The notes below the pieces were generated by a model. It was not told where the DNA came from and searched no databases. It saw only the letters and a list, made by a program, of their open reading frames with translations. 64,000 bases of DNA from Martelella mediterranea (GTDB taxonomy: Bacteria; Pseudomonadota; Alphaproteobacteria; Rhizobiales; Rhizobiaceae), in assembly GCF_004342225.1 (NCBI RefSeq), contig NZ_SMAR01000005.1:124001-188000 (forward strand), written 5' to 3'. A program made the translations under genes and the position numbers. Numbering within the stretch: the stretch's first letter is position 1; every line of letters begins with the position of its first letter. Shown here piece after piece: positions 23,454 through 40,777 of the stretch.

Positions 23454-23502
23454 GCTGTTGTTCCCCATTTTTGGATATTTATAAACATGCATCGTTGAAG
23501 GC

Positions 23503-25241: not shown

Positions 25242-25471
25242 TTGAGCAATTCCCAATAGGTTCTTTGTTTTTTTAGTTGTCCTGAATTTTGAAGGTCTTG
25301 CCCGACCCATCTCATGTCGTATTGCCAAGTATAAAATGGCTTTCCTGATGCCCTCAAATCATGTTCGTGGTGTTCCCAGATATGTTTGCAAATATCCGAG
25401 ATAGCTGCATTCCCCCCAGAATCTCGGAGCGCTTCTATAATCCATGTTTCTAGCTCAGATTTGATAGACAT
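25238..25471 (-). CDS. Small protein resembling the Mrr N-terminal winged-helix domain
   Basis: The 77-residue product has the look of a winged helix of the Mrr_N type: GGNAAISDICKHIWEHH (helices 1-2), FYTWQYDMRWVGQDLQ (recognition region) and QRTYWELL at the end, common in restriction-associated and other DNA-binding small proteins. GAGGG lies before its ATG. It begins 11 bases after the ATPase stop and its stop overlaps the permease start. By my count the gene is about 42 percent G+C, well below its neighbours, which suggests it came from elsewhere. Function unknown; a regulator or a toxin-antitoxin part are both possible. Confidence 0.7.
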   Translation of the reverse strand: MSIKSELETWIIEALRDSGGNAAISDICKHIWEHHEHDLRASGKPFYTWQYDMRWVGQDLQNSGQLKKQRTYWELLK

Positions 25472-25481
25472 TTAATTGCCC

Positions 25482-26273
25482 TCACTCATAGCTGTGCCCC
25501 GCGCGCAAACCTTCGCGCACACGATGCGCGATTTCCAGAAACTCCGGCGTCTCACGAATATCCAGCGGTCTTTCTTTCGGCAGTGGCGACTCGATCACAT
25601 CGGTGACACGGCCCGGTCGAGGGCTCATCACAACGATTTTGGTGGAAAGGTAGACGGCTTCCGGAATGGAGTGGGTAACAAAGCAGATCGTTTTGTTGGT
25701 GGCCGCCCAGAGCTTCAGAAGCTGTTCATTGAGGTGGTCCCGAACGATTTCATCAAGCGCGCCAAATGGCTCGTCCATCAAAAGCAGGTCGGCGTCAAAG
25801 GCAAGAGCACGGGCAATGGAGGCGCGTTGCTGCATGCCGCCGGAAAGCTGCCATGGGAATTTCTTTCCAAAGCCTGCAAGATCCACGAGTGCAAGCACAT
25901 GGCTGATCCGACGCGCCTGATCGGCTTTGGTGTAGCCCATGATTTCCAGCGGAAGTGCGATATTCTTCTCAATCGTACGCCATGGATAAAGTGCGGCTGA
26001 CTGAAAAACATAGCCATAGGCACGGTCCAGACGCGCATTTTCCGGCGTTGTGTTGTTGACAGTGATCTTGCCGGACGTTTTCTGCTCAAGGTCAGCAATA
26101 ACCCTCAGAAATGTGGTCTTGCCGCAGCCGGAAGGGCCGATGAAGGAGACAAAGTCTCCCTTCTTGACATCAAGGTCCACGTCCTTGAGTGCGTGAACCG
26201 GTCCGTCATTGGTGTTGAAGGTCAGACAGAGGTCTTCAGCCTTCACCACAGAAAGCGGAGTTTTCTCGCTCAT
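25482..26273 (-). CDS. ABC transporter ATPase (SsuB/TauB type)
   Basis: The 263-residue ATPase has Walker A GPSGCGKTT at about residue 48, a Q-loop (YVFQSAALYPWRTIEKNI), the signature LSGGMQQRASIARAL, Walker B LLLMDEPFGALDE and the switch VTHSIPEAVYLS. It powers the two downstream permeases. The start overlaps the NUDIX gene by 4 bases, showing one polycistronic message. Confidence 0.93.
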   Translation of the reverse strand: MSEKTPLSVVKAEDLCLTFNTNDGPVHALKDVDLDVKKGDFVSFIGPSGCGKTTFLRVIADLEQKTSGKITVNNTTPENARLDRAYGYVFQSAALYPWRTIEKNIALPLEIMGYTKADQARRISHVLALVDLAGFGKKFPWQLSGGMQQRASIARALAFDADLLLMDEPFGALDEIVRDHLNEQLLKLWAATNKTICFVTHSIPEAVYLSTKIVVMSPRPGRVTDVIESPLPKERPLDIRETPEFLEIAHRVREGLRAGHSYE

Positions 26274-26707
26274 GCTGCATTCTCCGCTTCCAAAAAGCGT
26301 TTTGCAGCGATTGGAAACAGATGTTTTTCTGTCAGTGCCGCGCGTTTCACAGTGATTTTCCCCTTAACCGGCAGCCATTTTATATCTTCGATTTCTGCCT
26401 GTGGCGTGACATCAGGACTGGCCAGCCAGGAATAGGATTCCGCCTCGACGATCATGCCCGGTTCATTTGCTGCCCATTCGCGATGCCTGCCCTCATAACG
26501 AAAGTTCTCCATGGAGCAGGTCAGCGCGAGTTCTTCATTCAGTTCACGGATCAGCGCTTCAAGTGGAGTCTCGCCGGGATCGATCTTGCCGCCGGGCTGC
26601 TGATATTTCGCAGTGCCTCGCTTTCGCACGGTGAGTATCTCACCGTGGCGGTTGATGATCATGGCGACGGCGATGCGGATATCTGCAGGCCGGTCATGAA
26701 GCGTCAT
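26270..26707 (-). CDS. NUDIX hydrolase
   Basis: The 145-residue protein carries a complete NUDIX box at about residue 45: GGKIDPGETPLEALIRELNE followed by E, matching G-x5-E-x7-R-E-x-x-E-E. It hydrolyses nucleoside diphosphates linked to another group; the preferred substrate is unknown. ATG 26707 is preceded by CGGAGAC. Being between a dihydropyrimidinase and a transporter ATPase, it may remove damaged or pyrimidine nucleotides, but that is inference. Confidence 0.9.
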   Translation of the reverse strand: MTLHDRPADIRIAVAMIINRHGEILTVRKRGTAKYQQPGGKIDPGETPLEALIRELNEELALTCSMENFRYEGRHREWAANEPGMIVEAESYSWLASPDVTPQAEIEDIKWLPVKGKITVKRAALTEKHLFPIAAKRFLEAENAA

Positions 26708-26727
26708 GTCTGTCTCCGGTTTATCTA

Positions 26728-28182
26728 TCAAACACCGCTTGGCGGAATGCCGGCACGTTCGATCTTGCGCGGTGCCACCAGTTCTTTCCATGTGGAAAGC
26801 GCCTTGTTGACGGCCGGGTAGGGCTCCCGGGCGACAAACTGTCCGTGACCGGCTTCGGCTTTAACCACGCCATCATCAACCACGACCTTGCCGCGAGACA
26901 GAGTATAGCGCGGCAGACCTTTGACCTTGAACCCCTCGAACACATTGTAGTCGATTGCCGACTGCTGGGTTTTGGCCGAGATCGTTTTTTCGCGTTCAGG
27001 ATCCAGCACGACAAGGTCTGCATCCGCGCCGACCAGTACCGCACCTTTCTTCGGGTACATATTGAGGATCTTGGCAATATTGGTGGAGGTGACGGCGACA
27101 AACTCGTTCATCGTCAACCGGCCCGTGCCAACGCCATAGGTCCACAGAAGTGGCAGACGGTCTTCTACTCCGCCGGTTCCGTTGGGGATCTTGGTGAAGT
27201 CATCCACACCGTAGCGTTTCTGCTCGGTGGTAAAAGCGCAATGGTCGGTGGCAACGCAGGAAAGCGACCCGGCCTGAAGGCCTGCCCAGAGCGAAGCCTG
27301 ATGGCTCTTGTTACGGAACGGAGGCGACATGACCCGACGGGCGGAATGATCCCAGTCCTTATCAAAATACTCGCTTTCATCAAGAAGCAGATGCTGGACC
27401 AGCGGTTCACCATAGACCCGCATGCCCTTTTGACGGGCGCGGCGGATCGCTTCATGGCTCTGCTCGCATGACGTATGAACCACATAAAGCGGAACGCCTG
27501 CCATATCGGCAAGCATAATGGCGCGGTTGGTGGCTTCGCCTTCCACTTCAGCAGGCCGTGAATAGGCATGGCCCTCCGGTCCGTTATTGCCTTCTGCCAG
27601 AAGCTTGGCTGCCATGGATGCGACAACATCGCCGTTTTCCGCATGAACCAACGGCATGGCGCCCAGCTCCGCACAACGCTGGAACGAGGCGAGCATCTCG
27701 TCATCATTGACCATCAGCGAGCCCTTATAGGCCATGAAATGCTTGAAGGTGTTGATGCCGCGCTCTTTCACCACGGCTTCCATTTCCTCAAACACCTGTT
27801 TGTCCCACCAGGTGATGGCCATGTGGAAGGAGTAGTCGCAATTGGCCTGCGTCGATTTGTTGTCCCAGCGCTTAAGCGCGTCAAACAGTGACTGGCCGGG
27901 ATTGGGCAGACAGAAGTCGACAACCATGGTTGTGCCACCGGCAATGGCTGCACGGGTTCCGCTTTCAAAGTCGTCGGAGGAATATGTTCCCATAAACGGC
28001 ATTTCCAGATGCACATGCGGGTCAATACCGCCGGGCATGACAAAGCAACCCTCTGCGTCCAGAGTGTCGTCGCCGGAAAGATCAGGGCCGATTTCGACAA
28101 TCTTGCCATTTTCGATCTTAACGTCGGATTTATAGGTCAGGTCTGCGGTGACAATCGTCCCGCCCTTGATCACTGTGCTCAT
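26728..28182 (-). CDS. hydA: Dihydropyrimidinase / D-hydantoinase
   Basis: This 484-residue amidohydrolase has GGIDPHVHLEMPFMGTYSSD with the metal His pair, the carbamylated Lys153 in FKHFMAYKGSLMV, and SDH-type ligands in SCVATDHCAFTT. It opens 5,6-dihydrouracil and dihydrothymine (or hydantoins) to N-carbamoyl amino acids. The length is normal for the family. The neighbouring amidohydrolase at 28931 would remove the carbamoyl group, and the RutR-like gene supports a pyrimidine role. The ATG has GGGAAC upstream. Confidence 0.92.
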   Translation of the reverse strand: MSTVIKGGTIVTADLTYKSDVKIENGKIVEIGPDLSGDDTLDAEGCFVMPGGIDPHVHLEMPFMGTYSSDDFESGTRAAIAGGTTMVVDFCLPNPGQSLFDALKRWDNKSTQANCDYSFHMAITWWDKQVFEEMEAVVKERGINTFKHFMAYKGSLMVNDDEMLASFQRCAELGAMPLVHAENGDVVASMAAKLLAEGNNGPEGHAYSRPAEVEGEATNRAIMLADMAGVPLYVVHTSCEQSHEAIRRARQKGMRVYGEPLVQHLLLDESEYFDKDWDHSARRVMSPPFRNKSHQASLWAGLQAGSLSCVATDHCAFTTEQKRYGVDDFTKIPNGTGGVEDRLPLLWTYGVGTGRLTMNEFVAVTSTNIAKILNMYPKKGAVLVGADADLVVLDPEREKTISAKTQQSAIDYNVFEGFKVKGLPRYTLSRGKVVVDDGVVKAEAGHGQFVAREPYPAVNKALSTWKELVAPRKIERAGIPPSGV

Positions 28183-28239
28183 GAAGCTGTTCCCTTTTGT
28201 TCGAACCGGCGGATTTTCCGCTTCTTGTTCTTCTGAAAG

Positions 28240-28458
28240 TTATTTCAGCCGAAATCCTCCCGGCTTCCGGATGTTGGATGACAGGCCTGCCGGTGTGGCC
28301 GAGGCCTGCGGTTTGATCGCGCCCCGGCTTTTCGCCGGAGCCGCGGATTTAGCGGCTGAAGACGTCGTGTCCGCTGCAACTGTTGAGGCAGGACGCGCAC
28401 CGATAAAGCCGATGGAGCGCAGCGCCTTTTTGTCTTTTATGCCGGATGCCTTCCTCAT
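28240..28458 (-). CDS. Small hypothetical protein, Ala/Ser/Lys-rich
   Basis: The 72-residue frame starts at ATG 28458, overlapping the acetyltransferase stop (ATGA), and ends 57 bases before the dihydropyrimidinase. It has a basic start (MRKASGIKDKKALRSIGF) and a low-complexity Ala/Ser/Lys/Pro middle. I do not recognise it. No signal peptide or membrane segment is seen. The overlap supports translation, but the ribosome binding site is weak and the composition could be accidental. Confidence 0.4.
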   Translation of the reverse strand: MRKASGIKDKKALRSIGFIGARPASTVAADTTSSAAKSAAPAKSRGAIKPQASATPAGLSSNIRKPGGFRLK

Positions 28459-28934
28459 GTTGCGACCGCTTCATCAGGTTGCAGGACCTTTGACATGAAA
28501 AGGCTGTAGGGATTTTCCGCGTAGTCGGCAAAGGGGCCGCATTCGATGTAGCCTCGACGACGATACATGGCGACGGCTTCGGTATTCAGCGGCCCGGTTT
28601 CGAGGAAAAGCGTCTGGATCCCGTGATCTTGAGCGGCCTGTTCCAGGCTGTTCATCAGTCCGCGGCCGACACCGTTTCCGCGTGCTGTATCATGCACATA
28701 GATGCGTTTGAGCTCCGCGCTCGTATCAGAAAGCCATTTCACCGCACCGCAGCCCGCCGCCTTGCCGTCCAGACGTGCGACCATGAAGGTCGTATCGGCT
28801 TGCCCAAGCGCTGCGATATCGACCGCGAAATTACCCTCAGGCGGATAAAGTGTGGCCATATAGCGGTCGGACAGTTCGATCAGCGCCCGGATTTCGGGTT
28901 GGTCAGGCTGTTCGATGGAGATCGTCAGGTTCAA
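28455..28934 (-). CDS. GNAT family N-acetyltransferase
   Basis: The 159-residue protein has the acetyl-CoA motif ELKRIYVHDTARGNGVGRGL at about residue 75 and a C-terminal GPLNTEAVAMYRRRGY. Such enzymes acetylate small amines or proteins; the substrate is unknown. No ATG fits; the likely start is TTG 28934, overlapping the stop of the upstream amidohydrolase, with GGAG in front. It lies inside the pyrimidine operon, so an amine product of the pathway is a possible target. Confidence 0.82.
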   Translation of the reverse strand: MNLTISIEQPDQPEIRALIELSDRYMATLYPPEGNFAVDIAALGQADTTFMVARLDGKAAGCGAVKWLSDTSAELKRIYVHDTARGNGVGRGLMNSLEQAAQDHGIQTLFLETGPLNTEAVAMYRRRGYIECGPFADYAENPYSLFMSKVLQPDEAVAT

Positions 28935-30184
28935 GCCGCAATCTCCGCGGTTTTCAGCACGGCCCGCAGCAGCACATCGGCACCTGCGGTGGCCCATTCT
29001 TTCGAAATGTCTTCCGCCTCATTATGGGAAAGGCCATCCACACATGGGCACATGACCATGGTTGCCGGTGCTACCTTGGTAGCCCAGCAGGCATCGTGCC
29101 CGGCGCCCGATACAATGTCCATGTGCTCATAGCCAAGTTCGACTGCGGCTTCCCGGACATTTTCGACAAGCTCCGGGGTAAAGGTTACCGGATCAAAATG
29201 GCCGACAGCTTCCACCGAGCAGCCAACGCCAAGGGCTTCACAGATCTCGGCGGCTTGCTTCTCGATGCGCGCACGCATTCCGTCCAGCTTTTCCTGATCG
29301 GCTGTTCGGATATCGACGGTGAACGTGACCGAGCCGGGCAGGACATTGCGGGAATTGGGCGAGAAGAACATCTGTCCGACACCGCCAACGGCATTGGGCT
29401 GAAAGTCCATCGTGATTGCCTGAACGGCTTCCAGTATCCTTGCCATGGCCAGGCCGGCATTCAAGCGCATGGCCATCGGTGTGGAGCCAGTATGTGTTTC
29501 CTTGCCGGTGAGTGTGAACTCCAGCCACCACAGGCCCTGACAGTGCGTCACAACGCCGATTTCCTTTTTCTCCGCCTCAAGGATCGGCCCCTGTTCGATG
29601 TGGTACTCATAATAGGCGTGCATCTTGCGGGCACCGACCTCTTCATCGCCGAGCCAGCCAATGCGTTTCAGCTCATCGCCATATGAGAGACCTTCCGGAT
29701 CGCGGCGGCCATAAGCGTAGTCGAGTGTGTGAACGCCTGCGAAAACGCCGGATGCCAGCATTGGTGGAGAAAAACGCGCACCTTCTTCATTGGCCCAGTT
29801 GGCAATGACAATCGGATGTCTGGTCTTGATATTCAGATCATTCAGCGTGCGAACCAGTTCCAGCCCAGACAATACGCCGAGCACACCATCATATTTGCCG
29901 CCCGTTGGTTGCGTATCAAGGTGCGAGCCGACGTAAACGGGAAGGGCCTCAGGGTCAGTGCCGGGGCGTGTCATGAACATTGAGCCCATCTTGTCCACGC
30001 CCATGGTCAGGCCGGCATCTTCGCACCATTTCTGAAACAGGGCACGGCCTTCGGCGTCTTCATCTGTCAGTGTCTGGCGATTATTGCCGCCAGCAACGCC
30101 GGGGCCGATTTTCGCCATCTCCATCAACGCATCCCAAAGCCGGTCACCATTGACCCGCATGTTTTCGCCCGCTTTTGCAACCAT
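28931..30184 (-). CDS. M20/Zn-dependent N-carbamoyl amidohydrolase (beta-ureidopropionase or allantoate type)
   Basis: This 417-residue member of the hydantoinase/carbamoylase family has GSHLDTQPTGGKYDGVLGVL at about residue 85, WANEEGARFSPPMLASGVFA at about residue 130 and the dimerisation domain TGKETHTGSTPM. Members release ammonia and CO2 from N-carbamoyl-beta-alanine, N-carbamoyl-L-amino acids or allantoate, which sequence alone does not separate. Position next to a dihydropyrimidinase and a divergent RutR-like gene favours N-carbamoyl-beta-alanine. It is the first gene of the operon. The ATG 30184 has GGAAACG upstream. Confidence 0.9.
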   Translation of the reverse strand: MVAKAGENMRVNGDRLWDALMEMAKIGPGVAGGNNRQTLTDEDAEGRALFQKWCEDAGLTMGVDKMGSMFMTRPGTDPEALPVYVGSHLDTQPTGGKYDGVLGVLSGLELVRTLNDLNIKTRHPIVIANWANEEGARFSPPMLASGVFAGVHTLDYAYGRRDPEGLSYGDELKRIGWLGDEEVGARKMHAYYEYHIEQGPILEAEKKEIGVVTHCQGLWWLEFTLTGKETHTGSTPMAMRLNAGLAMARILEAVQAITMDFQPNAVGGVGQMFFSPNSRNVLPGSVTFTVDIRTADQEKLDGMRARIEKQAAEICEALGVGCSVEAVGHFDPVTFTPELVENVREAAVELGYEHMDIVSGAGHDACWATKVAPATMVMCPCVDGLSHNEAEDISKEWATAGADVLLRAVLKTAEIAA

Positions 30185-30295
30185 ATCGTTTCCGTCCTCG
30201 CGTTCTTGTTTTCCGCACGGTGCTCGTTTGCCATCATGAGCATGGTGTTGTCTTGCATCGAGGGAAGATAATTCTTTTCAGTTCCCCTCCGGTTT

Positions 30296-30311
30296 TTGAC
30301 CGGTTGGTTAA
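30296..30311. promoter_or_regulatory. RutR-type operator TTGACCGGTTGGTTAA
   Basis: This site in the 267-base divergent gap matches the E. coli RutR consensus TTGACCA-N2-TGGTCAA at all but two of the 14 fixed positions. It lies between the amidohydrolase operon and the RutR-like gene. Relief of binding by uracil or thymine, as known for RutR, would induce the pathway. The rest of the gap holds no gene. Confidence 0.72.
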
Positions 30312-30451
30312 ACTTTACAGCTTCCCGTCATCTGCTCAAGTGCATATGATCAATTTCCGCGACGTTTTTTCGAAAAAATGGCCTAAAGCGTGTGCATGAT
30401 TTGTTTTTGTGCAAAGTTGTGCCAGATAGTAAGAGCAATGGGCAGGGCTTG

Positions 30452-31087
30452 ATGATTCCAAGAGCAGCGAAAACACAGCGCAGGACGCGTATTCAACAGG
30501 CAAAAGAAGAGATTATTCTTGAAGCAGCGCTTGATGTGTTTTCGGCCAATGGTTTCAAAGGATCGACAGTCGATCAGATCGCCGAGACAGCGGGTATGTC
30601 GAAGCCGAATGTGCTCTACTATTTCCGGACGAAAGAAGCGATGTTCACCGCATTGATCGACCGCGTTATGCAGGTCTGGCTCGATCCTTTACGCTTTTTC
30701 GACCCTGCCAATGATCCTGAGAGCGAGATACGCTCATACATCCGTCGAAAGCTGGAAATGGCGCGTGATTTCCCGCGCGAAAGCCGTATTTTTGCCAATG
30801 AGATTATTCATGGGGCACCGAACGTGGAAGAGCTTTTGCGTGGAGAGCTGAAGCAACTCGTCGACGAGAAGGCCGAGGTGATTCGTGCCTGGCAGCGCTC
30901 CGGAAAGCTCAGAAAGGTGGATCCATATCACCTCATCTTTTCAATCTGGTCCACGACACAGCATTATGCCGACTTTGATGTTCAGGTCCGTGCGGTGCTG
31001 GGTGAGGGGTTATCCGGTGAGGGGCGCTATGAAGATGCCGCGCGTTATCTGGAGATACTGTTCGTCAAAGGGCTGGTGATTTCCTGA
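30452..31087 (+). CDS. rutR: TetR-family regulator, RutR-like
   Basis: The 211-residue protein has a TetR-type N-terminal helix-turn-helix (DVFSANGFKGSTVDQIAETA, then GMSKPNVLYYF) and a ligand domain strongly like RutR: FPRESRIFANEIIHGAP and the late ADFDVQVRAVLG segment. RutR responds to uracil and thymine and controls pyrimidine use. ATG 30452 has AGGG upstream and is preferred over 30392. It is transcribed away from the pyrimidine operon, with a matching operator between the two. Confidence 0.87.
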   Translation: MIPRAAKTQRRTRIQQAKEEIILEAALDVFSANGFKGSTVDQIAETAGMSKPNVLYYFRTKEAMFTALIDRVMQVWLDPLRFFDPANDPESEIRSYIRRKLEMARDFPRESRIFANEIIHGAPNVEELLRGELKQLVDEKAEVIRAWQRSGKLRKVDPYHLIFSIWSTTQHYADFDVQVRAVLGEGLSGEGRYEDAARYLEILFVKGLVIS

Positions 31088-32213: not shown

Positions 32214-32287
32214 AAATTGACACATGGGTTAGTTTTTTCTAAAAAGAAAAAAGTTTTCCGTTCCGATAGTTCGAAGGACATCACCGC

Positions 32288-33325
32288 ATGCCGCATATGT
32301 CGATTTTTGCCCGTGCAACCGCGGTTGCCGCGCTTGTCTCCCTGCCTGCTTTTGTTGCTCAGGCACAGGATACCTTTGTTGTTTCCAACTGGGGTTACTC
32401 CAACGACTTTTATGAGCCCTTTATTTTCGAACCCTTCGAAAAGGCACACAATGTTAAGGTGGTCACAGAAACGGGTGGTGCCCCTGAGCGGCTGAACAAG
32501 GCGCGTATTCGTGGTGGTGTCGATGTGATCCTGCTGACGGACAAGTTCTCCCAGATTGGCATTAATCAGGGGGCATTTGAAGAAATCGACGGTTCGAAGC
32601 TCTCCAATTTCGATGAGCTTTATGATGCGGCCAAGAACCCGCAGGGTGACTACGGTCCGGCTTATACTTTCGGCCGTTATGGTATTGTTTATGACAAAAC
32701 CCGCACGGATACACCGATTACCTCATGGTGTGATCTGTGGCGTCCCGATTTTGAAAAGTCGATTGCCATGCCGGCGTTTAACACCACGGGCGGTCCACTG
32801 ACGGTCATGATGGCCGCCAAATGCGTCGGTACGGATGCTTTTGAGGACCCTGATGCAGCCTTTGCCAAGATGGAAGAGCTGAAACCGAATATTGTGAAGA
32901 CATTTTCGTCCGGTTCCGAGCTGACCAATCTTCTTTCAACGGGTGAGGCCTTTATCGGTCTGGCGCAGGATTATGCGTTCCCGGCTATCCAGGCGGCGAA
33001 CCCGAATATCGGTTGGGCTGAACTGAAGGAAGGCGACTTCCGGATGATGAACACCTATAACATTCCGAAGAATGCGAAGAATAAAGAGCTGGCGCTCGCC
33101 TTTATCGACTTTTCGCTTTCGCGGCAGGCCCAGAAAGATGCCGCTGTCGAGCTTGTCAGCGGCTCAGGCCCGGTAAACAAGACCGTTGAGCTGACACCGG
33201 AGCAGGCTTCCAGTCTGGTTTACGGTGAAGAGGCAGTCATGAGCATGCAGCCAACGCCTTACGACAAGCTGCTGAAGGTCAATGATGACTGGGAAAGCCG
33301 CTGGAATGCTGTTTTCGGACGCTGA
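32288..33325 (+). CDS. ABC transporter substrate-binding protein, PotD/PotF type
   Basis: The 345-residue protein has a signal peptide (ALVSLPAFVAQAQD) and the start of a spermidine/putrescine-type binding protein: TFVVSNWGYSNDFYEPFIFE, then a typical FSSGSELTNLLSTGEAFIGL region. The ligand is likely a cationic or amide amine, but the adjacent N-carbamoyl-D-amino-acid amidohydrolase leaves the real ligand open. AAGGAC lies before the ATG. It opens a unit of binding protein, two permeases, ATPase and amidohydrolase. Confidence 0.88.
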   Translation: MPHMSIFARATAVAALVSLPAFVAQAQDTFVVSNWGYSNDFYEPFIFEPFEKAHNVKVVTETGGAPERLNKARIRGGVDVILLTDKFSQIGINQGAFEEIDGSKLSNFDELYDAAKNPQGDYGPAYTFGRYGIVYDKTRTDTPITSWCDLWRPDFEKSIAMPAFNTTGGPLTVMMAAKCVGTDAFEDPDAAFAKMEELKPNIVKTFSSGSELTNLLSTGEAFIGLAQDYAFPAIQAANPNIGWAELKEGDFRMMNTYNIPKNAKNKELALAFIDFSLSRQAQKDAAVELVSGSGPVNKTVELTPEQASSLVYGEEAVMSMQPTPYDKLLKVNDDWESRWNAVFGR

Positions 33326-33337
33326 CGGTTTAGAATA

Positions 33338-34198
33338 TTGTCTCAGCGCGTCTCACCAATAAAGCGCATATGCGCGCTCGGTCCGTGGCTGCTGGTTTTT
33401 CCGGCAACCGCGGTCCTGCTTTTTGTTCTGGTCCTGCCGGTTGCCGGTACGCTGGCTGAAAGTTTCTCCAATCCCGCCGGGCTTTTTGCGAATTATCGCG
33501 ACTTCTTCGCAGATGCCTATAACCGGACGGTGATGCTCCGGTCTTTCCGGATAGCGTTTTTCTCTACAATGGTTGCGCTGGTGCTGGGGTTCGCCGGTGC
33601 CTATATGATTGCCAATGCGTCGCTTGGCCTGAAGCGTGTGCTTCTGATCCTGTCGGTGTTTCCGCTTCTCACCAGCGTTGTGGTTCGTTCCTTTTCGTTT
33701 ATGGCGATCCTCGGGCGCAATGGCGTGGTCAATACCGCTTTGATGAAGATGGGCCTGATCAGTGAACCACTCGAAATGCTCTTCACGCAAGGGGCAGTGA
33801 TTGCCGGTCTGGCCTATCTGTTCACGCCGTTGATGATCCTGTCGCTGGTCGGCGTTCTCGAAAACATCGAAGACGATCTTTATCTTGCTGCCGGATCGCT
33901 CGGTGCCAGCCCGGTCGCCGTCTTTTTTCAGGTCACGCTGCCGCTGGCTGTGCCAGGGATGATGGTCGGTTCGATCCTGGTGTTTACCGGTTCACTTGCG
34001 ACCTTTGTAACGCCGACTCTTCTTGGCGGTGAGCCGCAGATGACGCTTGCAACATTGCTCTATCAAAAAGCGATGATCTCGTTTGACTGGGGCGTGGCCA
34101 ATACCATCGCTGCAATCATGATGGGAACTGCGATATTCTGTGTCGTCGTCGTCGGTTCGCTGGCCGGGCGTCTTGCAGCACGGAGGACAGTCCAATGA
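33338..34198 (+). CDS. ABC transporter permease, PotB/PotH type
   Basis: The 286-residue permease has about six membrane segments, with the coupling region DDLYLAAGSLGASPVAVFFQ (EAA-type). The only in-frame start is a TTG at 33338 with a weak site, so the beginning is uncertain. It overlaps the next gene by ATGA. It is the first of the two channel proteins for the binding protein upstream. Confidence 0.88.
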   Translation: MSQRVSPIKRICALGPWLLVFPATAVLLFVLVLPVAGTLAESFSNPAGLFANYRDFFADAYNRTVMLRSFRIAFFSTMVALVLGFAGAYMIANASLGLKRVLLILSVFPLLTSVVVRSFSFMAILGRNGVVNTALMKMGLISEPLEMLFTQGAVIAGLAYLFTPLMILSLVGVLENIEDDLYLAAGSLGASPVAVFFQVTLPLAVPGMMVGSILVFTGSLATFVTPTLLGGEPQMTLATLLYQKAMISFDWGVANTIAAIMMGTAIFCVVVVGSLAGRLAARRTVQ

Positions 34199-34986
34199 TG
34201 TCGCGTCGCATTCACCCGCTCTCGAAAGCCTTCGGCTGGCTGGTTATTCTGTTTCTGGCCGGGCCGATCATTATCGTGATCGGCACATCGGTGAGCGATA
34301 CGCCGTTTCTGGCTTTTCCGCCGCAAGGCTTCACGCTCAAATGGTATGCCAATGTTTTTCAGCATAGCGGCTTTCTCGACACCTTCATTATCTCCATGCA
34401 GGTGGCGGTTGGCGGCACGCTGATAGCGCTGGTAACAGGCCTTGCTGCAGCTTATGCGCTCTCGCGCTACAAGATGCGCATTCCGGGCTGGTATGGATCG
34501 GTGTTCTTTCTGCCGTTCTTCATTCCGGAGATCGTGTTCGGCTTTTCTTTGCTCAAAACGCTGATTGTGCAGTTTGAACTGCCGATCCTGCCCTCGCTGA
34601 TCCTGGGGCATTCCATCCTCTGCCTGCCCTACATGGTGCGGGTTATCGGTGCCAGTCTGGCCGGTTTTGACTTTTCGATACAAGAAGCCGCCGTCAGTCT
34701 GGGCATGCATCCGGCAAAGGCATTCTGGACAATCGTGCTGCCCAACATTCGCTCCGGTGTGATTGCAGGCATGGTGCTTGCCTTTATTACCTCGCTGAAT
34801 GACATGGCAGTTGCCCTGTTTCTGACAGGGCCGGGGATTTCCACTCTGCCGATTGAGGTTTTCACCTATGTTCAGCAATTTTTCGATCCGACCGTCAGCG
34901 CGGTTTCTGTTCTGCTGATGGGCGTCACCATTCTTGTCATGGTTCTGATCGAGCGCAGTCTCGGCCTGTCAAAGACCGTTCAATAG
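34195..34986 (+). CDS. ABC transporter permease, PotC/PotI type
   Basis: The 263-residue inner-membrane protein has six membrane segments and the EAA coupling motif FSIQEAAVSLGMHPAKAFWT. The segment AYALSRYKMRIPGWYGSVFF is typical of the family. Its start overlaps the first permease gene by 4 bases. It pairs with that permease. Confidence 0.89.
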   Translation: MMSRRIHPLSKAFGWLVILFLAGPIIIVIGTSVSDTPFLAFPPQGFTLKWYANVFQHSGFLDTFIISMQVAVGGTLIALVTGLAAAYALSRYKMRIPGWYGSVFFLPFFIPEIVFGFSLLKTLIVQFELPILPSLILGHSILCLPYMVRVIGASLAGFDFSIQEAAVSLGMHPAKAFWTIVLPNIRSGVIAGMVLAFITSLNDMAVALFLTGPGISTLPIEVFTYVQQFFDPTVSAVSVLLMGVTILVMVLIERSLGLSKTVQ

Positions 34987-34994
34987 GAGTTAAA

Positions 34995-36071
34995 ATGGCT
35001 GAAAACGCCGTTATTCTGAAAGATGTAACCGCACATTACGGTTCCACGCAGGTTCTGCACGGTCTGAACCTTTCAGTGGGTGAGGGCGAACTGGTGTCGC
35101 TTCTTGGTTCGAGTGGTTGCGGCAAGACGACGACACTGCGTTTGCTGGCTGGTTTTCTGCAGCCCACAGGCGGCAGTATTTCGGTTGCCGGGCGCGATGT
35201 CACAGGCCTGCCGCCGCACAAGCGCGATGCCGGGATCGTGTTTCAGAACTATGCCCTGTTTCCGCATCTTACTGTTGCCGAAAACGTCGGTTTCGGGCTG
35301 AAACAGCGCAAGGTTGAGCCGTCAGAACGCGAGCGCCGCACGAAAGACATGCTGGCCCGTGTCGGGCTGACCGGCTTTGCCGGCCGTCTGCCAGCAGCTC
35401 TTTCCGGTGGTCAGCGCCAGCGTGTCGCAGTTGCCCGGGCGCTGGCAATTGATCCGCCGCTCCTGATGTTTGATGAGCCTTTGTCAAACCTTGATGCCAA
35501 GCTCAGGGTTGATATGCGCGTCGAGATCCGTGAGCTGCAGAAGGCCAATAACCGGACGGCAATTTATGTGACGCATGATCAGGAAGAGGCGTTTTCGATT
35601 TCGGATCGGGTCGCGATCATGAATGCCGGAAATATCGTTCAGCTGGATACGCCGGAAGTGCTCTACACCCGCCCGGTGAACGCGTTTGTCGCCCGTTTTG
35701 TGGGCTTTGACAATCTGATTGCGATGCAGGTGAGCGCGCGCAATGGTTCGAAGGTCACAGCGGAAAATCGTGGTGGTGGTTCCGTGGTGCTGGATGAGGC
35801 TAAAACAGGTCCCTTGCCTGAGAAATTCATTGTCGGTGCACGGCCCGAGGGCCTGAGCCTGGCAGAGCCTGCGAGCGAAAACACAATCTCCGGTCAGACC
35901 CGTATGCGTTCCTATCTCGGACGTGCCTATCAGTATAAGGTCGAAACGGCTGCCGGTATGCTGGTGGCCAATGGTTCATTGCAAAATCCGATTGAAGCGG
36001 AAAGCAATGTCGGTATCGCGTTTAATTTTGATCAGTGCTGCATCCTCGAAGATGAAGGGGATTTCGCATGA
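34995..36071 (+). CDS. ABC transporter ATPase, PotA/PotG type
   Basis: This 358-residue ATPase has Walker A GSSGCGKTT at about residue 37, the signature LSGGQRQRVAVARAL, Walker B LLMFDEPLSNLDAK and VTHDQEEAFSISDR. A TOBE-like domain occupies the C-terminal third. It powers the two permeases. GGAG precedes the ATG. Its stop overlaps the amidohydrolase start (ATGA), binding the enzyme to the transporter's function. Confidence 0.93.
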   Translation: MAENAVILKDVTAHYGSTQVLHGLNLSVGEGELVSLLGSSGCGKTTTLRLLAGFLQPTGGSISVAGRDVTGLPPHKRDAGIVFQNYALFPHLTVAENVGFGLKQRKVEPSERERRTKDMLARVGLTGFAGRLPAALSGGQRQRVAVARALAIDPPLLMFDEPLSNLDAKLRVDMRVEIRELQKANNRTAIYVTHDQEEAFSISDRVAIMNAGNIVQLDTPEVLYTRPVNAFVARFVGFDNLIAMQVSARNGSKVTAENRGGGSVVLDEAKTGPLPEKFIVGARPEGLSLAEPASENTISGQTRMRSYLGRAYQYKVETAAGMLVANGSLQNPIEAESNVGIAFNFDQCCILEDEGDFA

Positions 36072-37000
36072 GCCGGACACTGGTTGCCGCTGCGGCCCAG
36101 ATGGGGCCGATCGCGCTCTCTGATACCAGACGCGAGGTCGTTGCACGCCTGATCGCATTGCTGCATGAAGCGGCATCACGCGGGGCGGAACTGGTGGTGT
36201 TTCCCGAACTGACACTGACGACCTTTTTCCCACGTTGGTATATGACCGACCCGGACGAGATTGATGCATTTTATGAGACTGAAATGCCGGGCCGGGAAAC
36301 GCTGCCGCTTTTTGAGGCCGCAAAGAAGCTCAGAATCGGTTTTTATCTCGGATATGCTGAGCTCGTCGTCGAAAACGGCGTGAAGCGTCGCTTCAATACC
36401 TCGATCCTTGTTGACAGGGACGGGGAATTCGTCGGCAAATACCGGAAAATCCACCTGCCGGGCTGGGATGCGCCGCAGCCGGATCTCAAATCCCAGCACC
36501 TTGAGAAGTACTACTTTGAGCCGGGCGATCTGGGCTTCAATGTTTTCGAGGCGTTTGGCACACGGGTTGGCATGGCGATCTGCAATGACCGCCGCTGGCC
36601 CGAAACCTATCGTGTTATGGCACTGAGAGGATCCGAAATGATCCTTGTCGGCTATAATACGCCGGACGATCACACAGGCAATTTCGATTTTGACAGCCTG
36701 ACGCAGTTTCACAACCAGCTTTCCATACAGGCCGGTGCCTATCAAAATTCCAACTGGGTGATTGCGACAGCCAAAGCCGGGCATGAAGAAGGATCGAACC
36801 TGATCGGGCAGTCGATGATTGTGGCGCCCTCCGGTCAGATTGTTGCGATGGCGACGTCGACGGATGATGAGGTGGTCGTGGCAAAGTGCGATCTCGATAT
36901 GGCCGCACTCTATCGCAAGACGATCTTTGATTTCGCGCGGCATCGCGAACCTGAGCACTATCGCCTGATTGTCGAAAACAGAGGACCGTTAACGAGCTAG
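36068..37000 (+). CDS. N-carbamoyl-D-amino-acid amidohydrolase (nitrilase superfamily)
   Basis: The 310-residue enzyme matches the Agrobacterium D-carbamoylase. The catalytic triad is Glu47 in VVFPEL, Lys127 in YRKIHLPG and Cys172 in AICNDRRWPE. The family stretch RRFNTSILVDRDGEFVGKYR is present. It hydrolyses an N-carbamoyl group, usually of D-amino acids, to ammonia, CO2 and the free amino acid in the cytoplasm. Translational coupling to the transporter ATPase suggests the imported compound, or one step from it, is the substrate. Confidence 0.9.
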   Translation: MSRTLVAAAAQMGPIALSDTRREVVARLIALLHEAASRGAELVVFPELTLTTFFPRWYMTDPDEIDAFYETEMPGRETLPLFEAAKKLRIGFYLGYAELVVENGVKRRFNTSILVDRDGEFVGKYRKIHLPGWDAPQPDLKSQHLEKYYFEPGDLGFNVFEAFGTRVGMAICNDRRWPETYRVMALRGSEMILVGYNTPDDHTGNFDFDSLTQFHNQLSIQAGAYQNSNWVIATAKAGHEEGSNLIGQSMIVAPSGQIVAMATSTDDEVVVAKCDLDMAALYRKTIFDFARHREPEHYRLIVENRGPLTS

Positions 37001-37053
37001 AGCGCCGTCCATCAATTCGGGGTACCAAGGACGCTCTAACCTATTGAAACTAC

Positions 37054-37097
37054 GCATCGTGCTTTCCGAAAATCGATTCCGATTTTCGGACCGATGC
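37054..37097. repeat. Rhizobial palindromic repeat
   Basis: Outer arms GCATCG/CGATGC and inner arms TCCGAAAATCG/CGATTTTCGGA form a nested inverted repeat in the gap after the amidohydrolase gene. I recognise this as a dispersed element seen in many intergenic regions of Brucella, Agrobacterium and relatives. It can fold in mRNA and may stabilise or terminate the transcript. Confidence 0.7.
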
Positions 37098-37138
37098 TGT
37101 AAGGCAATGGGCGGACATGAAAGCGGGGAGGGGCTGGA

Positions 37139-37765
37139 ATGAACCAGCGTGAAACGGTTTTGGATGAGGGCGGTGCGCATTCTGTTGGCCGTATCCTTGC
37201 AGATCTGCGGCACGATAATGGCTGGACGCTTGCTGAGGTTTCCAAAAGAACAGGCGTATCCATTTCAGCACTTTCGAAGATCGAAAATGGTCAGAGTCAT
37301 CCGGCCTATTCGGTGCTGACCCGGCTTTCGAGTGGGCTGGGTCTGGATTTTTCCGATCTTCTTGAGGGAAAGTCCTCGCGCACACCTTTCGCCCGTGCTG
37401 TGCGTGTTATCAACCGTGATGGCGAAGGCCGGATGCTGAAGAACGACATGGGACGCTACAGGATGCTCTCCACCGATCTTGCGGCCAAGGCACTGACACC
37501 GATGATTATTGATGTTCCGCCGCTGGCGCCCGGTGCCACGCCAGCGCGAAGTGCGCATAGCGGCGAAGAGTTTGTCTACGTTGTTTCTGGCAGCGTGGTT
37601 TTTGAAATGGAACCTTATGCGCCAACAGTGCTGGCGACAGGTGAAACGGTTTATTTCGATGCGGCCTCCGAACACGGTTTTTATGCCAGCGGGCCGGAAG
37701 GCGCGCGTATCCTTTCCATCTGCTATTCCGGTTCGGGCGATGCGCCGGACCATCTCACGGTGTAA
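37139..37765 (+). CDS. XRE-family regulator with C-terminal cupin domain
   Basis: The 208-residue protein has an N-terminal XRE helix-turn-helix (NGWTLAEVSKRTGVSISALS at about residue 27) and a C-terminal cupin with HSGEEFVYVVSGSVVFEM. Such regulators sense a small molecule with the cupin. GGAGGGG precedes the ATG. It starts a second unit with the adenine-deaminase-like gene 2 bases downstream and the PLP enzyme after it, so it very likely controls these. Confidence 0.92.
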   Translation: MNQRETVLDEGGAHSVGRILADLRHDNGWTLAEVSKRTGVSISALSKIENGQSHPAYSVLTRLSSGLGLDFSDLLEGKSSRTPFARAVRVINRDGEGRMLKNDMGRYRMLSTDLAAKALTPMIIDVPPLAPGATPARSAHSGEEFVYVVSGSVVFEMEPYAPTVLATGETVYFDAASEHGFYASGPEGARILSICYSGSGDAPDHLTV

Positions 37766-37767
37766 TT

Positions 37768-39609
37768 ATGATTGATGCAAAATCCGAAGTCCGGCTGCGC
37801 CAGCAGCTAACGCTTGTTGCTCTGGGCAAGGTATCTGCCGACCGTATCCTGCGCGTCGGCAAGCTGCTTGATACGGCAACGCGCACATGGAGTGAAAATC
37901 AGGATATTGTCATCAAGGGCGAGCGCATTGCTTATGTCGGCCCCGCCGGATCCTGGCCGGGAACGTGCGAAACCATTGATGAGCACCCGGATATGATGGC
38001 CATTCCCGGTCTGGGCGAAGTGCATAAGCATATTGAAAGCTCGCATCTTACGCCTGAATGGGAGGCGGCTCTGGTGATGCCGCGAGGCAATACCTGGACA
38101 TGCGAAGCCAGCCATGAGTTTTCCAATGTGCGCGGATCGAAGACGCTGGATTTCTGGATGACGGCGCGTCAGCATGGCTCACCGCTGAAAATCTTTCCGC
38201 TCCCCGGTTCTGCCGTTCCACCGACGGCCTATGAACATGGTGGCGGCTGGCTTGGGCATGATGAGCAGCGTGACTTTCTGGCCGGAAGCCTGATGGTGGC
38301 CGGGCTGGACGAAGTCATGGACTGGCCTGCCGTCTGGAATCCGGAGAATCCTTCCCATGAGCGCCTTTGGGGTATGATTGAGGCCACGTTCGCCGCGCGC
38401 GGCGTTGTTGAAGGTCATGCTGCCGGTCTGAAAGACCTGCCGACGATCAATGCCTTTGCTGCGGCTGGTATGGCCTCTGATCATGAAGCATGGACGGCAG
38501 AGGAATTCTGGAACAAGCTCACGCACGGTCTTTTTGCTGAACTTCGCCCGCATTCTATGCCGGACGTGATCAGCGGGCTTCTGGAACGCGGGCTGGCTGA
38601 CTGGTCTCAGATTGCTTTTGCGACGGATGACCGGAGTGCGTCTGAAACACTTCAGAAGGGCGCAACCGATTATAATGTCCGCCTCGCGATTCAATCCGGT
38701 CTCCAGCCGGAAATTGCGATTCAATGCGTTACTATCAATCCCGCACGGCATATGCGGCTGACCCCTTGGGTTGGTATGATCGCGCCGGGCCGGTTTGCTG
38801 ACATTGTCCTGCTGTCCGATCTGAAGACTTTTGAAATTGCTGAGGTCTGGGCGGACGGGAAACAGGTTTCCCGCGGCAACGACTATATTCTGCCCGTGCC
38901 GGAGATCGACTGGCCGGAATGGGCGACAAATACGGTCAATGTTGGTGGACAGTTCAGCGCTGAAGACTTTGCGATCCGTGCTGAGCCCGGACGGGAAACC
39001 ATGACAGCGGCGGTCCTGCGTCCCTTTTTCTGGGAGGATGATTTCCTAACTTATGAGTTACCGGTGGAGGCTGGCTTCGTGCAGCGCGATGCGGCAAAGG
39101 CGATCACCAAGTTTGCGATTGTCGATCGTTTCTCCGGTCAAAAGGCCGTTTCCAGAATGTTCTGGGCCGGTACCGGTCCGAAAACGCCGGATTGTGCACT
39201 GGCCAGCTCACTTGCCCACGACAAGCACAATATCTGGTGCGTCGGTTCATCCGATGAGGCCATGGCCAAGGCCGTCAATGCACTCAGTGAAATCGGCGGC
39301 GGATGGGCGCTTGTGCGTGACAATGAGATTGTGGCAACGGTGCGCTACGAGGTCGCCGGGCTGATGTCGCAGCGCTCTGCTGAAGATCTCGATGCCGATA
39401 TGCAGAAACTGTATGCCGAGGGCGAGAAGATCGAGTGGATGTTCGAGCCGTCGTCTTCTCCGCGCTGGTGGGCAGGATTCCCCGAGCGTCTGGCCTTTGC
39501 AACACTGACCTGCGCTCCATGGCGCTGGGTTCTGGTCGCGCCTTCCGATTATGCGCCGGAAGGGCTGGTCAACGTTGCCACTGGCAAAACGCATAAGATC
39601 GTCTGGTAA
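37768..39609 (+). CDS. Adenine-deaminase-like metal-dependent hydrolase, divergent
   Basis: The 613-residue protein aligns by eye along the adenine deaminase family: metal motif EVHKHIESS (residues about 84-92), ASHEFSNV, GHAAG, SDHE, FATDDR and the C-terminal HDKHNI. Two sites differ from the classical enzyme: DAHxH has become E-V-H-K-H, and DPHE has become ASHE. The metal-binding His and Asp residues seem mostly kept. It could deaminate another aminated ring or hydrolyse a cyclic amide. Its start lies 2 bases after the regulator's stop, so the genes form one message. Confidence 0.8.
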   Translation: MIDAKSEVRLRQQLTLVALGKVSADRILRVGKLLDTATRTWSENQDIVIKGERIAYVGPAGSWPGTCETIDEHPDMMAIPGLGEVHKHIESSHLTPEWEAALVMPRGNTWTCEASHEFSNVRGSKTLDFWMTARQHGSPLKIFPLPGSAVPPTAYEHGGGWLGHDEQRDFLAGSLMVAGLDEVMDWPAVWNPENPSHERLWGMIEATFAARGVVEGHAAGLKDLPTINAFAAAGMASDHEAWTAEEFWNKLTHGLFAELRPHSMPDVISGLLERGLADWSQIAFATDDRSASETLQKGATDYNVRLAIQSGLQPEIAIQCVTINPARHMRLTPWVGMIAPGRFADIVLLSDLKTFEIAEVWADGKQVSRGNDYILPVPEIDWPEWATNTVNVGGQFSAEDFAIRAEPGRETMTAAVLRPFFWEDDFLTYELPVEAGFVQRDAAKAITKFAIVDRFSGQKAVSRMFWAGTGPKTPDCALASSLAHDKHNIWCVGSSDEAMAKAVNALSEIGGGWALVRDNEIVATVRYEVAGLMSQRSAEDLDADMQKLYAEGEKIEWMFEPSSSPRWWAGFPERLAFATLTCAPWRWVLVAPSDYAPEGLVNVATGKTHKIVW

Positions 39610-39613
39610 TTGC

Positions 39614-40777
39614 ATGACAACTGCAAAGGAATATCCGAATGCGGGCGCGTTCCCGAATGCGGGATCGCTGGCAAGCCCCTGCGTAGTCATTGATGAGCTG
39701 CGTCTGGCGAAAAACATCGCTGAGATGCAGACGATCGCAAATGCTGGTGGTGTGGCTCTGCATCCGCATATCAAAACGCATAAGTCGCTTGCAATCGCCG
39801 ATTTTCAGCGCGTAGAAGGGGCAAAGGGTGTCACGGCCTCCCATCCGGCAGAAGCGGCGGTCTTTGTGCGTGCCGGGTTTTCGCCAGTCACGCTTGCCTA
39901 TCCGGTGATCGAGGCCGAGCCGCTTTCAAAGCTTCTGGAACTTGGGAGCCAGTGTGGTGTGAAGCTGCGCTTCATTGCAGACAGTTACGCCGGCGTGGCT
40001 GCGCTCGCAGCTGCGGCTGAGGACACGGGAAAAACCGTAGATGTCTTCATGAAGGTCGATACAGGGCTGCATCGCTGTGGCGTCGATCCTGGGACGGAAG
40101 AGGCAGGCAGCGTTGCGAAGGCGATCCATGGGGCGTCGCATCTGGTCTTTGCCGGTTTGCTTTCCCATGCCGGACATTCCTATGGCGCTGGCGGGCTGGA
40201 TGGCGTTCGTGCTGTTGCATCAGGGGAAGCGCAAATCCTGAAAGCGCTGAAAGCGAAGCTCATGGGCCTTGGTGTGTCTGTGCCGCTTGTTTCTGTCGGG
40301 AGCACGCCGACGCTGATTGCCAATGCCGGATTTGATGGTATTGATGAGGTGCGGCCGGGCAATTACGTTTTTTATGATATGACAGCCGTGCGCCTTGGTA
40401 TAGTCAACCGCGGGCAGATTGCTCTGGCCGTGGTGGCGACAATCATTTCCGCCAACAGCGAGTCCTATATCGTGGACGCCGGATCAAAGACGCTCAGTTC
40501 CGATCTCGGGCCGCACAGTGTGGCCGGTGTGACAGGTTATGGTGAAGCCTGGTCCGAAAAGCTTGACCGTCCGCTGATTGTTGAAAAGCTCTCCGAGGAG
40601 CATGGGATTGTTGGGCGTCAGGGAACCGGACTTGAGATCGGTGACCGGCTTCTGATTTATCCCAACCACGCCTGTGTGGTCGCCAATCTGGCAGCAGAGC
40701 TTGTGCTTCTGTCGAATGACGGTGCTTCCCGGATGATGATCGATGCTGCCGATCCTTCCGCACGTCTGGCTTTTTGA
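39614..40777 (+). CDS. PLP enzyme of the DSD1 / D-threonine aldolase family
   Basis: The 387-residue protein has an alanine-racemase-type barrel with PLP Lys54 in HPHIKTHKS and a metal His-x-Cys in PNHACVVANL near the end, typical of D-threonine aldolase and eukaryotic-type D-serine dehydratase. It acts on a D-amino acid bearing a beta-hydroxyl or similar group. Start ATG 39614 lies 4 bases after the previous stop. Coupling with the amidohydrolases fits a D-amino-acid product being degraded. Confidence 0.87.
   Translation: MTTAKEYPNAGAFPNAGSLASPCVVIDELRLAKNIAEMQTIANAGGVALHPHIKTHKSLAIADFQRVEGAKGVTASHPAEAAVFVRAGFSPVTLAYPVIEAEPLSKLLELGSQCGVKLRFIADSYAGVAALAAAAEDTGKTVDVFMKVDTGLHRCGVDPGTEEAGSVAKAIHGASHLVFAGLLSHAGHSYGAGGLDGVRAVASGEAQILKALKAKLMGLGVSVPLVSVGSTPTLIANAGFDGIDEVRPGNYVFYDMTAVRLGIVNRGQIALAVVATIISANSESYIVDAGSKTLSSDLGPHSVAGVTGYGEAWSEKLDRPLIVEKLSEEHGIVGRQGTGLEIGDRLLIYPNHACVVANLAAELVLLSNDGASRMMIDAADPSARLAF

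What the first reader, a model, noticed from the sequence alone, without database searches (positions are those of the whole stretch)
32288..40777. Possible new catabolic pathway: transporter, D-carbamoylase, deaminase-like protein and D-amino-acid enzyme
A PotFGHI-like importer is translationally coupled to an N-carbamoyl-D-amino-acid amidohydrolase. A second unit holds an XRE-cupin regulator, a divergent adenine-deaminase-like protein and a DSD1/D-threonine-aldolase-like enzyme. The order suggests import of a carbamoyl or cyclic amide compound, ring or amide opening, decarbamoylation to a D-amino acid, and its cleavage. I know of no described pathway with this set.
Basis: inference. Interest (0 to 1): 0.68.

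Follow-up and report, generated by a model that had tools for sequence, protein, structure and literature searches.

The report
Carbamoylase operon with odd deaminase
A conserved, movable gene set in soil and marine relatives of rhizobia appears to import and dismantle a nucleobase-like compound that carries a carbamoylated amino acid; the genes and their shared control are well supported, the exact compound is not known.

Summary
The eight genes are present and belong together. A transporter is linked in 22 of 22. The last gene is the DSD1-like enzyme in 19 and an L-carbamoylase in 3. The adenine-deaminase-like protein is a separate subfamily with purine/nucleoside neighbours: 16 of 18 stretches against 1 of 40 random ones. 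The PLP enzyme has the His/Cys metal site of dehydratases, not the His/Asp site of D-threonine aldolase. Five of the six nearest non-cassette carbamoylases examined sit beside a hydantoinase; here the Ade-like gene takes that place. Best reading (0.4): import of a purine-like compound with an exocyclic ureido-acid, its release as an N-carbamoyl amino acid, decarbamoylation, then beta-elimination of a D-beta-hydroxy amino acid. t6A/ct6A from tRNA are the boldest candidates (0.2). No substrate was tested.

The parts
32235..32250 (.). palindrome TTTTCTAAAAAGAAAA, predicted operator of the XRE-cupin regulator
   Evidence: exact site 53 nt before the SBP start; same motif (at most 1 mismatch) within 250 nt upstream of the first gene in 22 of 22 cassettes, 0.6 expected; 3 of 43 loci with Ade-like + Pot but no regulator. 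Which protein binds is inferred.
32288..33325 (+). periplasmic solute-binding protein, Pot-like
   Evidence: PF13416; nearest PDB 4edp, 228.9 bits; PotD/PotF equivalogs far below cut-off
33338..34198 (+). ABC permease 1
   Evidence: PF00528; PotH/PotB best but below cut-off
34195..34986 (+). ABC permease 2
   Evidence: PF00528; PotC best but below cut-off; 4-nt overlap with permease 1
34995..36071 (+). ABC ATPase
   Evidence: PF00005 + TOBE_2
36068..37000 (+). N-carbamoyl-D-amino-acid hydrolase
   Evidence: PF00795 181 bits; PDB D-carbamoylases 385-393 bits; K127, C172, R175, R176 in 52 of 52 rows and E47 in 51 of 51 rows that cover it (window and some partial duplicates among the rows)
37139..37765 (+). 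XRE-cupin regulator, seen only with this cassette
   Evidence: HTH_3 + Cupin_2; 3 of 297 order genomes, the three with the cassette; in plasmids 9 records at 55-74%, the nine cassette records; next listed hits 41% or less
37768..39609 (+). adenine-deaminase-like amidohydrolase of a separate subfamily
   Evidence: TIGR01178 284.7 bits, cut-off 472.5; nearest fold 3nqb/3t81; metal-ligand motifs kept, subfamily-fixed changes
39614..40777 (+). DSD1-family PLP enzyme, predicted D-beta-hydroxy-amino-acid dehydratase
   Evidence: PF01168 + PF14031; nearest PDB 3wqc D-threo-3-hydroxyaspartate dehydratase, 179 bits; K75, H373, C375 in 20 of 20 rows, window included (numbering of the 408-aa ORF from 39551); start

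Best explanation
One regulon under an XRE-cupin regulator. A Pot-like (in some genomes also or only BMP-type) ABC importer brings in a purine-like nucleobase or nucleoside that carries an amino acid through an exocyclic ureido (carbamoyl) group. The adenine-deaminase-like metalloenzyme hydrolyses the exocyclic C-N bond, as adenine deaminase does, but the leaving group is an N-carbamoyl amino acid instead of ammonia. The DSD1-type PLP/zinc enzyme then dehydrates the freed D-beta-hydroxy amino acid to a 2-oxo acid and NH3. Shown: gene set, conservation, shared upstream motif, family membership, catalytic residues, purine-type neighbours of the Ade-like subfamily. Inferred: the substrate, the bond cut by the Ade-like enzyme, the order of steps, dehydration, and that the regulator binds the motif.
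For: Set conserved in 22 loci; among 10 representative loci no flanking gene family beyond a BMP importer and a TatD-like gene is shared. Regulator and close DSD1 (2 of 297 genomes at E <= 1e-60; the 9 plasmid records at 50% or more are the cassette records) are almost confined to the cassette. Operator-like motif 22 of 22. Ade-like subfamily: nucleoside hydrolase, NCS2, TRZ/ATZ deaminase, PRTase or BMP genes near 16 of 18 evenly drawn stretches against 1 of 40 random ones, Fisher p 3e-11. Ade-like metal-ligand motifs kept but DPHE changed to ASHE and D84, M87, M93, G211 (canonical) changed to E, K, H, R. L-carbamoylase directly after the Ade-like gene in L044, L045, L068; G239 (L045) has a second, 84% PydC copy elsewhere, so that one looks dedicated. 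Five of six nearest non-cassette D-carbamoylases looked at (63-69%) stand next to a hydantoinase, so the Ade-like gene sits where a producer of N-carbamoyl amino acids is expected. PLP enzyme metal site His/Cys (PMC4401734 passages). Precedent for amidohydrolases that remove alkylamines from modified nucleobases: NdmH (PMC13054789, abstract and section 8).
Against: No substrate was tested. Only 4 of 22 cassettes have a nucleoside hydrolase in the stretch held. The Ade-like gene occurs without D-carbamoylase in 88 of 109 stretches, some of them short, so its product need not be a carbamoyl compound. Of 16 more distant D-carbamoylases (56-60%) looked at, none has this HydA nearby, 8 have an L-carbamoylase-like gene and 8 neither, so a hydantoinase neighbour is not the rule in the wider family. 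In G273 (L044) the L-carbamoylase next to Ade-like is the only close copy (the other match is 30%), so there it may simply be the general PydC. The D configuration is unexplained unless the precursor epimerises. The reference genes for the neighbour test were picked from Ade-like neighbourhoods on plasmids, and the motif was found by eye in the loci on which it was counted.
Confidence: 0.4

Rival explanations
1. Nitrogen-scavenging regulon of two independent functions: the Ade-like enzyme deaminates some purine base, while carbamoylase and DSD1 enzyme degrade unrelated N-carbamoyl-D-amino acids that the same importers take up.
For: Ade-like subfamily occurs without D-carbamoylase in 88 of 109 stretches and stands with an NCS2 permease in Agrobacterium and Bradyrhizobium.
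Against: The regulator was not seen outside the cassette and close DSD1 hardly so (G050 at 46%; one Ade-like + DSD1 locus, L100, has no carbamoylase in view); Dcarb-XRE-Ade order never broken in 22 loci; no HydA in any of the 109 stretches, so a linked source of carbamoyl-D-amino acids would be missing.
Confidence: 0.25
2. One reading: the Ade-like enzyme is a hydantoinase-like opener of a non-purine cyclic amide, giving an N-carbamoyl-D-amino acid, then a D-amino acid, then its breakdown.
For: In Aminobacter SR38 and Rhizobium oryzihabitans plasmids a 64-65% identical D-carbamoylase stands with L-carbamoylase and hydA; the Ade-like gene takes the hydA place; D- plus L-carbamoylase in L044, L045, L068 suits a racemising hydantoin.
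Against: Purine/nucleoside neighbours of the subfamily; best sequence and fold match is adenine deaminase; the hydantoinase model TIGR02033 gives 20 bits and no hydantoinase is among the 50 fold matches shown.
Confidence: 0.2
3. Ordinary hydantoin/pyrimidine utilisation island, an extension of the HydA/PydC/RutR cluster at 22-31 kb.
For: HydA 26728-28182 and a PydC-like gene 28931-30184 with a RutR-like regulator lie 1.2-5.6 kb before the SBP in this window.
Against: HydA at 50% or more is not in any of 109 other Ade-like stretches; the cassette is found on plasmids and large contigs with unrelated flanks.
Confidence: 0.08

Closest known systems
Hydantoin utilisation operons (D-hydantoinase + D-/L-carbamoylase + ABC importer)
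   Same: D-carbamoylase 63-69% identical in five such loci, L-carbamoylase in some, ABC importer in the Aminobacter plasmid
   Different: no hydantoinase in the cassette; an adenine-deaminase-like enzyme takes its place; XRE-cupin regulator; DSD1-type enzyme at the end
Adenine deaminase (Ade; PDB 3nqb, 3t81)
   Same: domain layout, C-terminal domain and metal-binding motifs
   Different: 27-28% identity to the solved enzymes in the fold alignment, below the equivalog cut-off; DPHE to ASHE and other fixed changes; different C-terminal stretch with WRWVLVAP
N2,N2-dimethylguanine hydrolase NdmH and N6-methyladenine deaminase
   Same: amidohydrolases that cut an exocyclic amine from a modified nucleobase (PMC13054789, abstract and section 8 read)
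   Different: other amidohydrolase subfamily (recalled); the leaving group proposed here is a ureido acid
Zn-dependent D-serine / D-threo-3-hydroxyaspartate dehydratase (DSD1 family)
   Same: both domains, PLP lysine and His/Cys metal site
   Different: only distantly similar by sequence (126-179 bits); substrate unknown; the annotated plasmid homologues are named 'alanine racemase'

Membership tests
N-carbamoyl-D-amino-acid hydrolase | nitrilase fold family with Glu-Lys-Cys triad and paired carboxylate-binding arginines (residue roles recalled) | tested here: met
   K127, C172, R175, R176 in 52 of 52 rows, E47 in 51 of 51 that cover it; 385-393 bits to solved D-carbamoylases
N-carbamoyl-D-amino-acid hydrolase | activity and D-specificity | not testable with these tools
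   needs an assay
Adenine deaminase (TIGR01178 equivalog) | score at or above the curated cut-off | tested here: not met
   284.7 bits against 472.5
Adenine deaminase | metal-ligand motifs HxH, HE, GH, DHE, TDD | tested here: met
   H86, H88, H116, E117, H217, H239, D287 the same in at least 95% of 19 subfamily rows and at least 85% of 18 canonical rows; ligand roles recalled
Adenine deaminase | canonical DPHE motif | tested here: not met
   ASHE in 19 of 19 subfamily rows; D and P in at least 85% of 18 canonical rows
D-threonine aldolase | metal site His + Asp | tested here: not met
   His373/Cys375 in 20 of 20 rows; His347/Asp349 in the aldolase (PMC4401734, passages)
DSD1-type dehydratase | Ala_racemase_N + D-ser_dehydrat domains and His/Cys metal site | tested here: met
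   3LLX, of unpublished function, has the same site
PotFGHI/PotABCD polyamine importer | NCBIfam equivalog cut-offs | tested here: not met
   PotD 81.5/582, PotH 146.7/489, PotC 141.8/326, PotA 316.5/482 bits
Hydantoinase-carbamoylase operon | hydantoinase gene linked to the carbamoylase | tested here: not met
   no HydA at 50% or more in 109 Ade-like stretches; in the window HydA lies in a separate cluster on the other strand

The most novel reading that the evidence does not exclude
The regulon is a dedicated pathway for the N6-threonylcarbamoyl-adenine family (t6A and its hydantoin form ct6A) left by tRNA turnover: the Ade-like enzyme gives hypoxanthine and N-carbamoyl-threonine (or its hydantoin), carbamoylases free threonine or, after epimerisation of the hydantoin, D-allo-threonine, and the DSD1-type enzyme turns it into 2-oxobutyrate. 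It accounts for purine neighbours, carbamoylase, both stereo-versions of the carbamoylase in Cohaesibacter, and an enzyme for beta-hydroxy D-amino acids.
Probability: 0.2. Interest if true: 0.85.

Novelty: new variant of a known kind. Interest (0 to 1): 0.56.

Why it matters
It would join two fields, hydantoin/carbamoyl-amino-acid chemistry and nucleobase salvage, in one regulon, give an unassigned adenine-deaminase subfamily a testable function, and correct the 'alanine racemase' label of its PLP enzyme. If the substrate is of the t6A family it would be a breakdown route for a universal tRNA modification; the rows shown by my searches hold no paper whose title or abstract start describes one. 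The subfamily may also be a source of enzymes that cut N6-substituted purines.

Tried and rejected
A second exact operator-like site in the own genome lies upstream of a gene that I judged by eye to be an L-threonine aldolase (its only NCBIfam match, a PLP-aldolase model, has 51.7 bits against a cut-off of 230), tempting for the threonine idea. Rejected: genome-wide exact matches are at chance level (12 against 11 for the reversed pattern), and none of the 12 other genomes of the genus has a site with one mismatch or less there (two have a two-mismatch one). An inverted repeat TTGAGCA-N11-TGCTCAA upstream of the SBP was dropped because it occurs in 1 of 22, the window. Canonical purine catabolism via allantoin and the reductive uric acid route (recalled) were set aside: no such gene is annotated in the six annotated plasmid cassettes; I did not search for them otherwise. 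AmdH of the Microvirga-type clusters is nearest to MTA/SAH deaminases in PDB, not shown to be NdmH. Structure model of the Ade-like protein: pLDDT 76.5 with poor active-site loops and no coordinates at hand, so no pocket analysis. The epimerisation of ct6A to a D-allo form is recalled in part: I saw only passages naming the hydantoin form, its epimerisation and ring opening (PMC13244150) and d-allo-t6A standards (PMC8693639); the primary paper PMC5389693 is not held. The tree is a quick one, with 37 of 105 inner branches open; its change counts (Dcarb 7, DSD1 9, Pot 17) are rough, and L039, whose Ade-like gene is split in two frames, is not in it.

Full report
WHAT IS THERE. The window (G000:C5:124001-188000) belongs to a genome whose nearest named relatives for this cassette are Martelella. 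Permease 1/2 and ATPase/D-carbamoylase overlap by 4 nt; regulator and Ade-like gene are 2 nt apart; the DSD1-like gene probably starts at 39614, 4 nt after the Ade-like stop. The 138 nt before the regulator gene are probably what suggested two units.

CONSERVATION. A scan of bacterial and archaeal genome contigs with the Ade-like alignment kept the 80 best loci (381 of 424 matched stretches encode a relative). Together with 11 plasmid stretches and 18 stretches from 16 genomes of an even sample of 297 order genomes (the window's own place not counted) this makes 109. Dcarb, XRE and Ade-like occur together in 21 of them, in the same order each time; with the window 22. Some are near duplicates (for instance L033/L067 and L034/L035/L089), so 22 is not 22 independent events. 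In the window's genus 10 of 13 genomes hold the Ade-like gene. The Pot-like SBP is present in 19 of 22; the other three (L037, L038, L072) have a BMP-type importer. DSD1 is last in 19; in L044, L045 and L068 an L-carbamoylase stands there instead. Among 10 representative loci the only gene families shared by two or more are cassette members, the BMP importer and a TatD-like hydrolase, apart from one reverse-strand frame that I take for an antisense ORF. The regulator at E <= 1e-40 is in 3 of 297 genomes, the three with the cassette; in plasmids the 9 records at 55-74% are the cassette records. DSD1 at E <= 1e-60 is in 2 of 297 genomes, one of them (G050, 46%) without a cassette.

ONE REGULON. 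Within 250 nt upstream of the first gene of the cassette a palindrome TTTTC-N6-GAAAA (at most one mismatch) is found in 22 of 22 loci, 0.6 expected from resampled sequence; upstream of SBP or Ade-like in 43 loci that have both but lack carbamoylase and regulator it is found in 3; within 120 nt before the regulator gene in 0 of 22. The motif was noticed by eye in these loci, which weakens the first number but not the contrast. Elsewhere in the own genome exact matches are at chance level.

THE ADE-LIKE ENZYME. It scores 284.7 bits to the adenine deaminase equivalog, below the 472.5 cut-off, is nearest to A. tumefaciens adenine deaminase 3nqb by sequence and fold (the model has mean pLDDT 76.5) and forms a subfamily with a clear gap: 60% identity and more to the window protein inside, 36% and less for the next matches listed. 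Metal-ligand motifs are kept; residues fixed differently in the subfamily include E84, K87, H93, A114-S115 (canonical DP), R211, W279, T294, N303, and a different C-terminal stretch. Its neighbourhoods speak of purines: in the even order sample 16 of 18 stretches have nucleoside hydrolase, NCS2 permease, TRZ/ATZ deaminase-like, PRTase or BMP genes (four also a Pot-SBP), against 1 of 40 random stretches of 12 of these genomes (references from plasmid records and the window; 16 against 2 with all reference genes). The two without are L046 and L060. In Microvirga, Devosia and Pararhodobacter loci the same enzyme often stands with nucleoside hydrolases, a TRZ/ATZ deaminase, PRTase, an M20 aminoacylase and a Pot-like importer. 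The aminoacylase (21 stretches) and the D-carbamoylase (21 stretches) never occur in the same stretch, as if they were alternative ways to deal with the acyl part. That is inference.

CARBAMOYLASE AND PLP ENZYME. P0005 has the catalytic and carboxylate-binding residues of D-carbamoylases. Six relatives outside the cassette at 63-69% were looked at; five stand next to a hydantoinase (G050, G181; Aminobacter SR38, Rhizobium oryzihabitans, Sulfitobacter), two of these also with an L-carbamoylase; G257 (64%) has neither. A Paracoccus one at 61% stands beside a hydantoinase B/oxoprolinase gene. Of 16 at 56-60%, none has this HydA in the stretch fetched, 8 have an L-carbamoylase-like gene, 8 neither. 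In the cassette the Ade-like gene occupies the place that the hydantoinase has in the nearest relatives. The L-carbamoylase of L044 and L045 is 67% identical to the window's PydC-like protein; G239 (L045) carries a separate 84% PydC, G273 (L044) has no other close copy (next match 30%); the genome of L068 was not searched. P0008 has the His/Cys metal site of D-serine dehydratase in 20 of 20 rows, whereas D-threonine aldolase uses His/Asp (PMC4401734, passages); 3LLX, of unpublished function, also has His/Cys. So a D-beta-hydroxy amino acid and a beta-elimination are the likeliest last step.

MECHANISM. Taken together: a purine-like compound bearing an amino acid through a ureido link is imported; the Ade-like enzyme releases the ureido acid; carbamoylase(s) free the amino acid; the PLP enzyme dehydrates it. 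Of natural compounds known to me the t6A family (N6-threonylcarbamoyl-adenine; recalled, with passages from PMC9654439, PMC8693639, PMC13244150) fits best: purine, ureido link, beta-hydroxy amino acid, and a hydantoin form reported to epimerise. Against it: t6A itself carries L-threonine, 18 of 22 cassettes show no nucleoside hydrolase in the stretch held, and nothing was assayed. Amidohydrolases for modified nucleobases from bacteria have precedent in NdmH (PMC13054789: outline, abstract and section 8 seen).

LITERATURE. Full-text searches for the gene combination found nothing (0 papers; 4 papers with three of four terms, none with the carbamoylase term). Searches on t6A breakdown and ct6A listed no catabolic route in the titles and abstract starts shown (15 of 111, 7 of 7, 10 of 15 and 12 of 460 papers); the library holds open-licence papers only.

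VERDICT.

Noticed in passing
22452-31087: Pyrimidine/hydantoin cluster next door: an importer with a ThiY-like binding protein (judged by eye), HydA 26728-28182, PydC/allantoate-amidohydrolase-like 28931-30184, RutR-like TetR 30392-31087; all on the opposite strand except the regulator.
   Followed up: partly
L040, L098, L102 and similar loci: Microvirga/Devosia/Pararhodobacter/Qingshengfaniella cluster: Ade-like + TRZ/ATZ deaminase + nucleoside hydrolases + PRTase + M20 aminoacylase + Pot-like importer, apparently a separate modified-nucleoside catabolic island.
   Followed up: partly
L041, L042, L052, L128, L133, L138-L142: Ade-like subfamily member next to an NCS2 nucleobase permease (AzgA-like by eye) in Agrobacterium plasmids and Bradyrhizobium-type contigs.
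   Followed up: partly
L034:13167-18554, L037, L059: BMP-type ABC importer plus TatD-like hydrolase linked to the cassette or to the Ade-like gene; role of the TatD-like protein unknown.
   Followed up: no
L039:10001-11838 and L038:14179-15724: Ade-like gene split in two frames in Rhizobium sp. CC-CFT758, and a split BMP ATPase gene in R. ruizarguesonis TP42: decay or sequencing error.
   Followed up: no
L138: A contig titled Frankia sp. RB7 carries the Bradyrhizobium-type Ade-like/NCS2 pair and groups with Bradyrhizobium in the tree; the title is probably wrong or the assembly mixed.
   Followed up: no
37001-37138: In the window 138 nt with a GAAAATCGATTCCGATTTTC-type repeat separate carbamoylase and regulator genes, whereas six annotated plasmid cassettes have 14-36 nt there; looks like an inserted intergenic repeat.
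   Followed up: no
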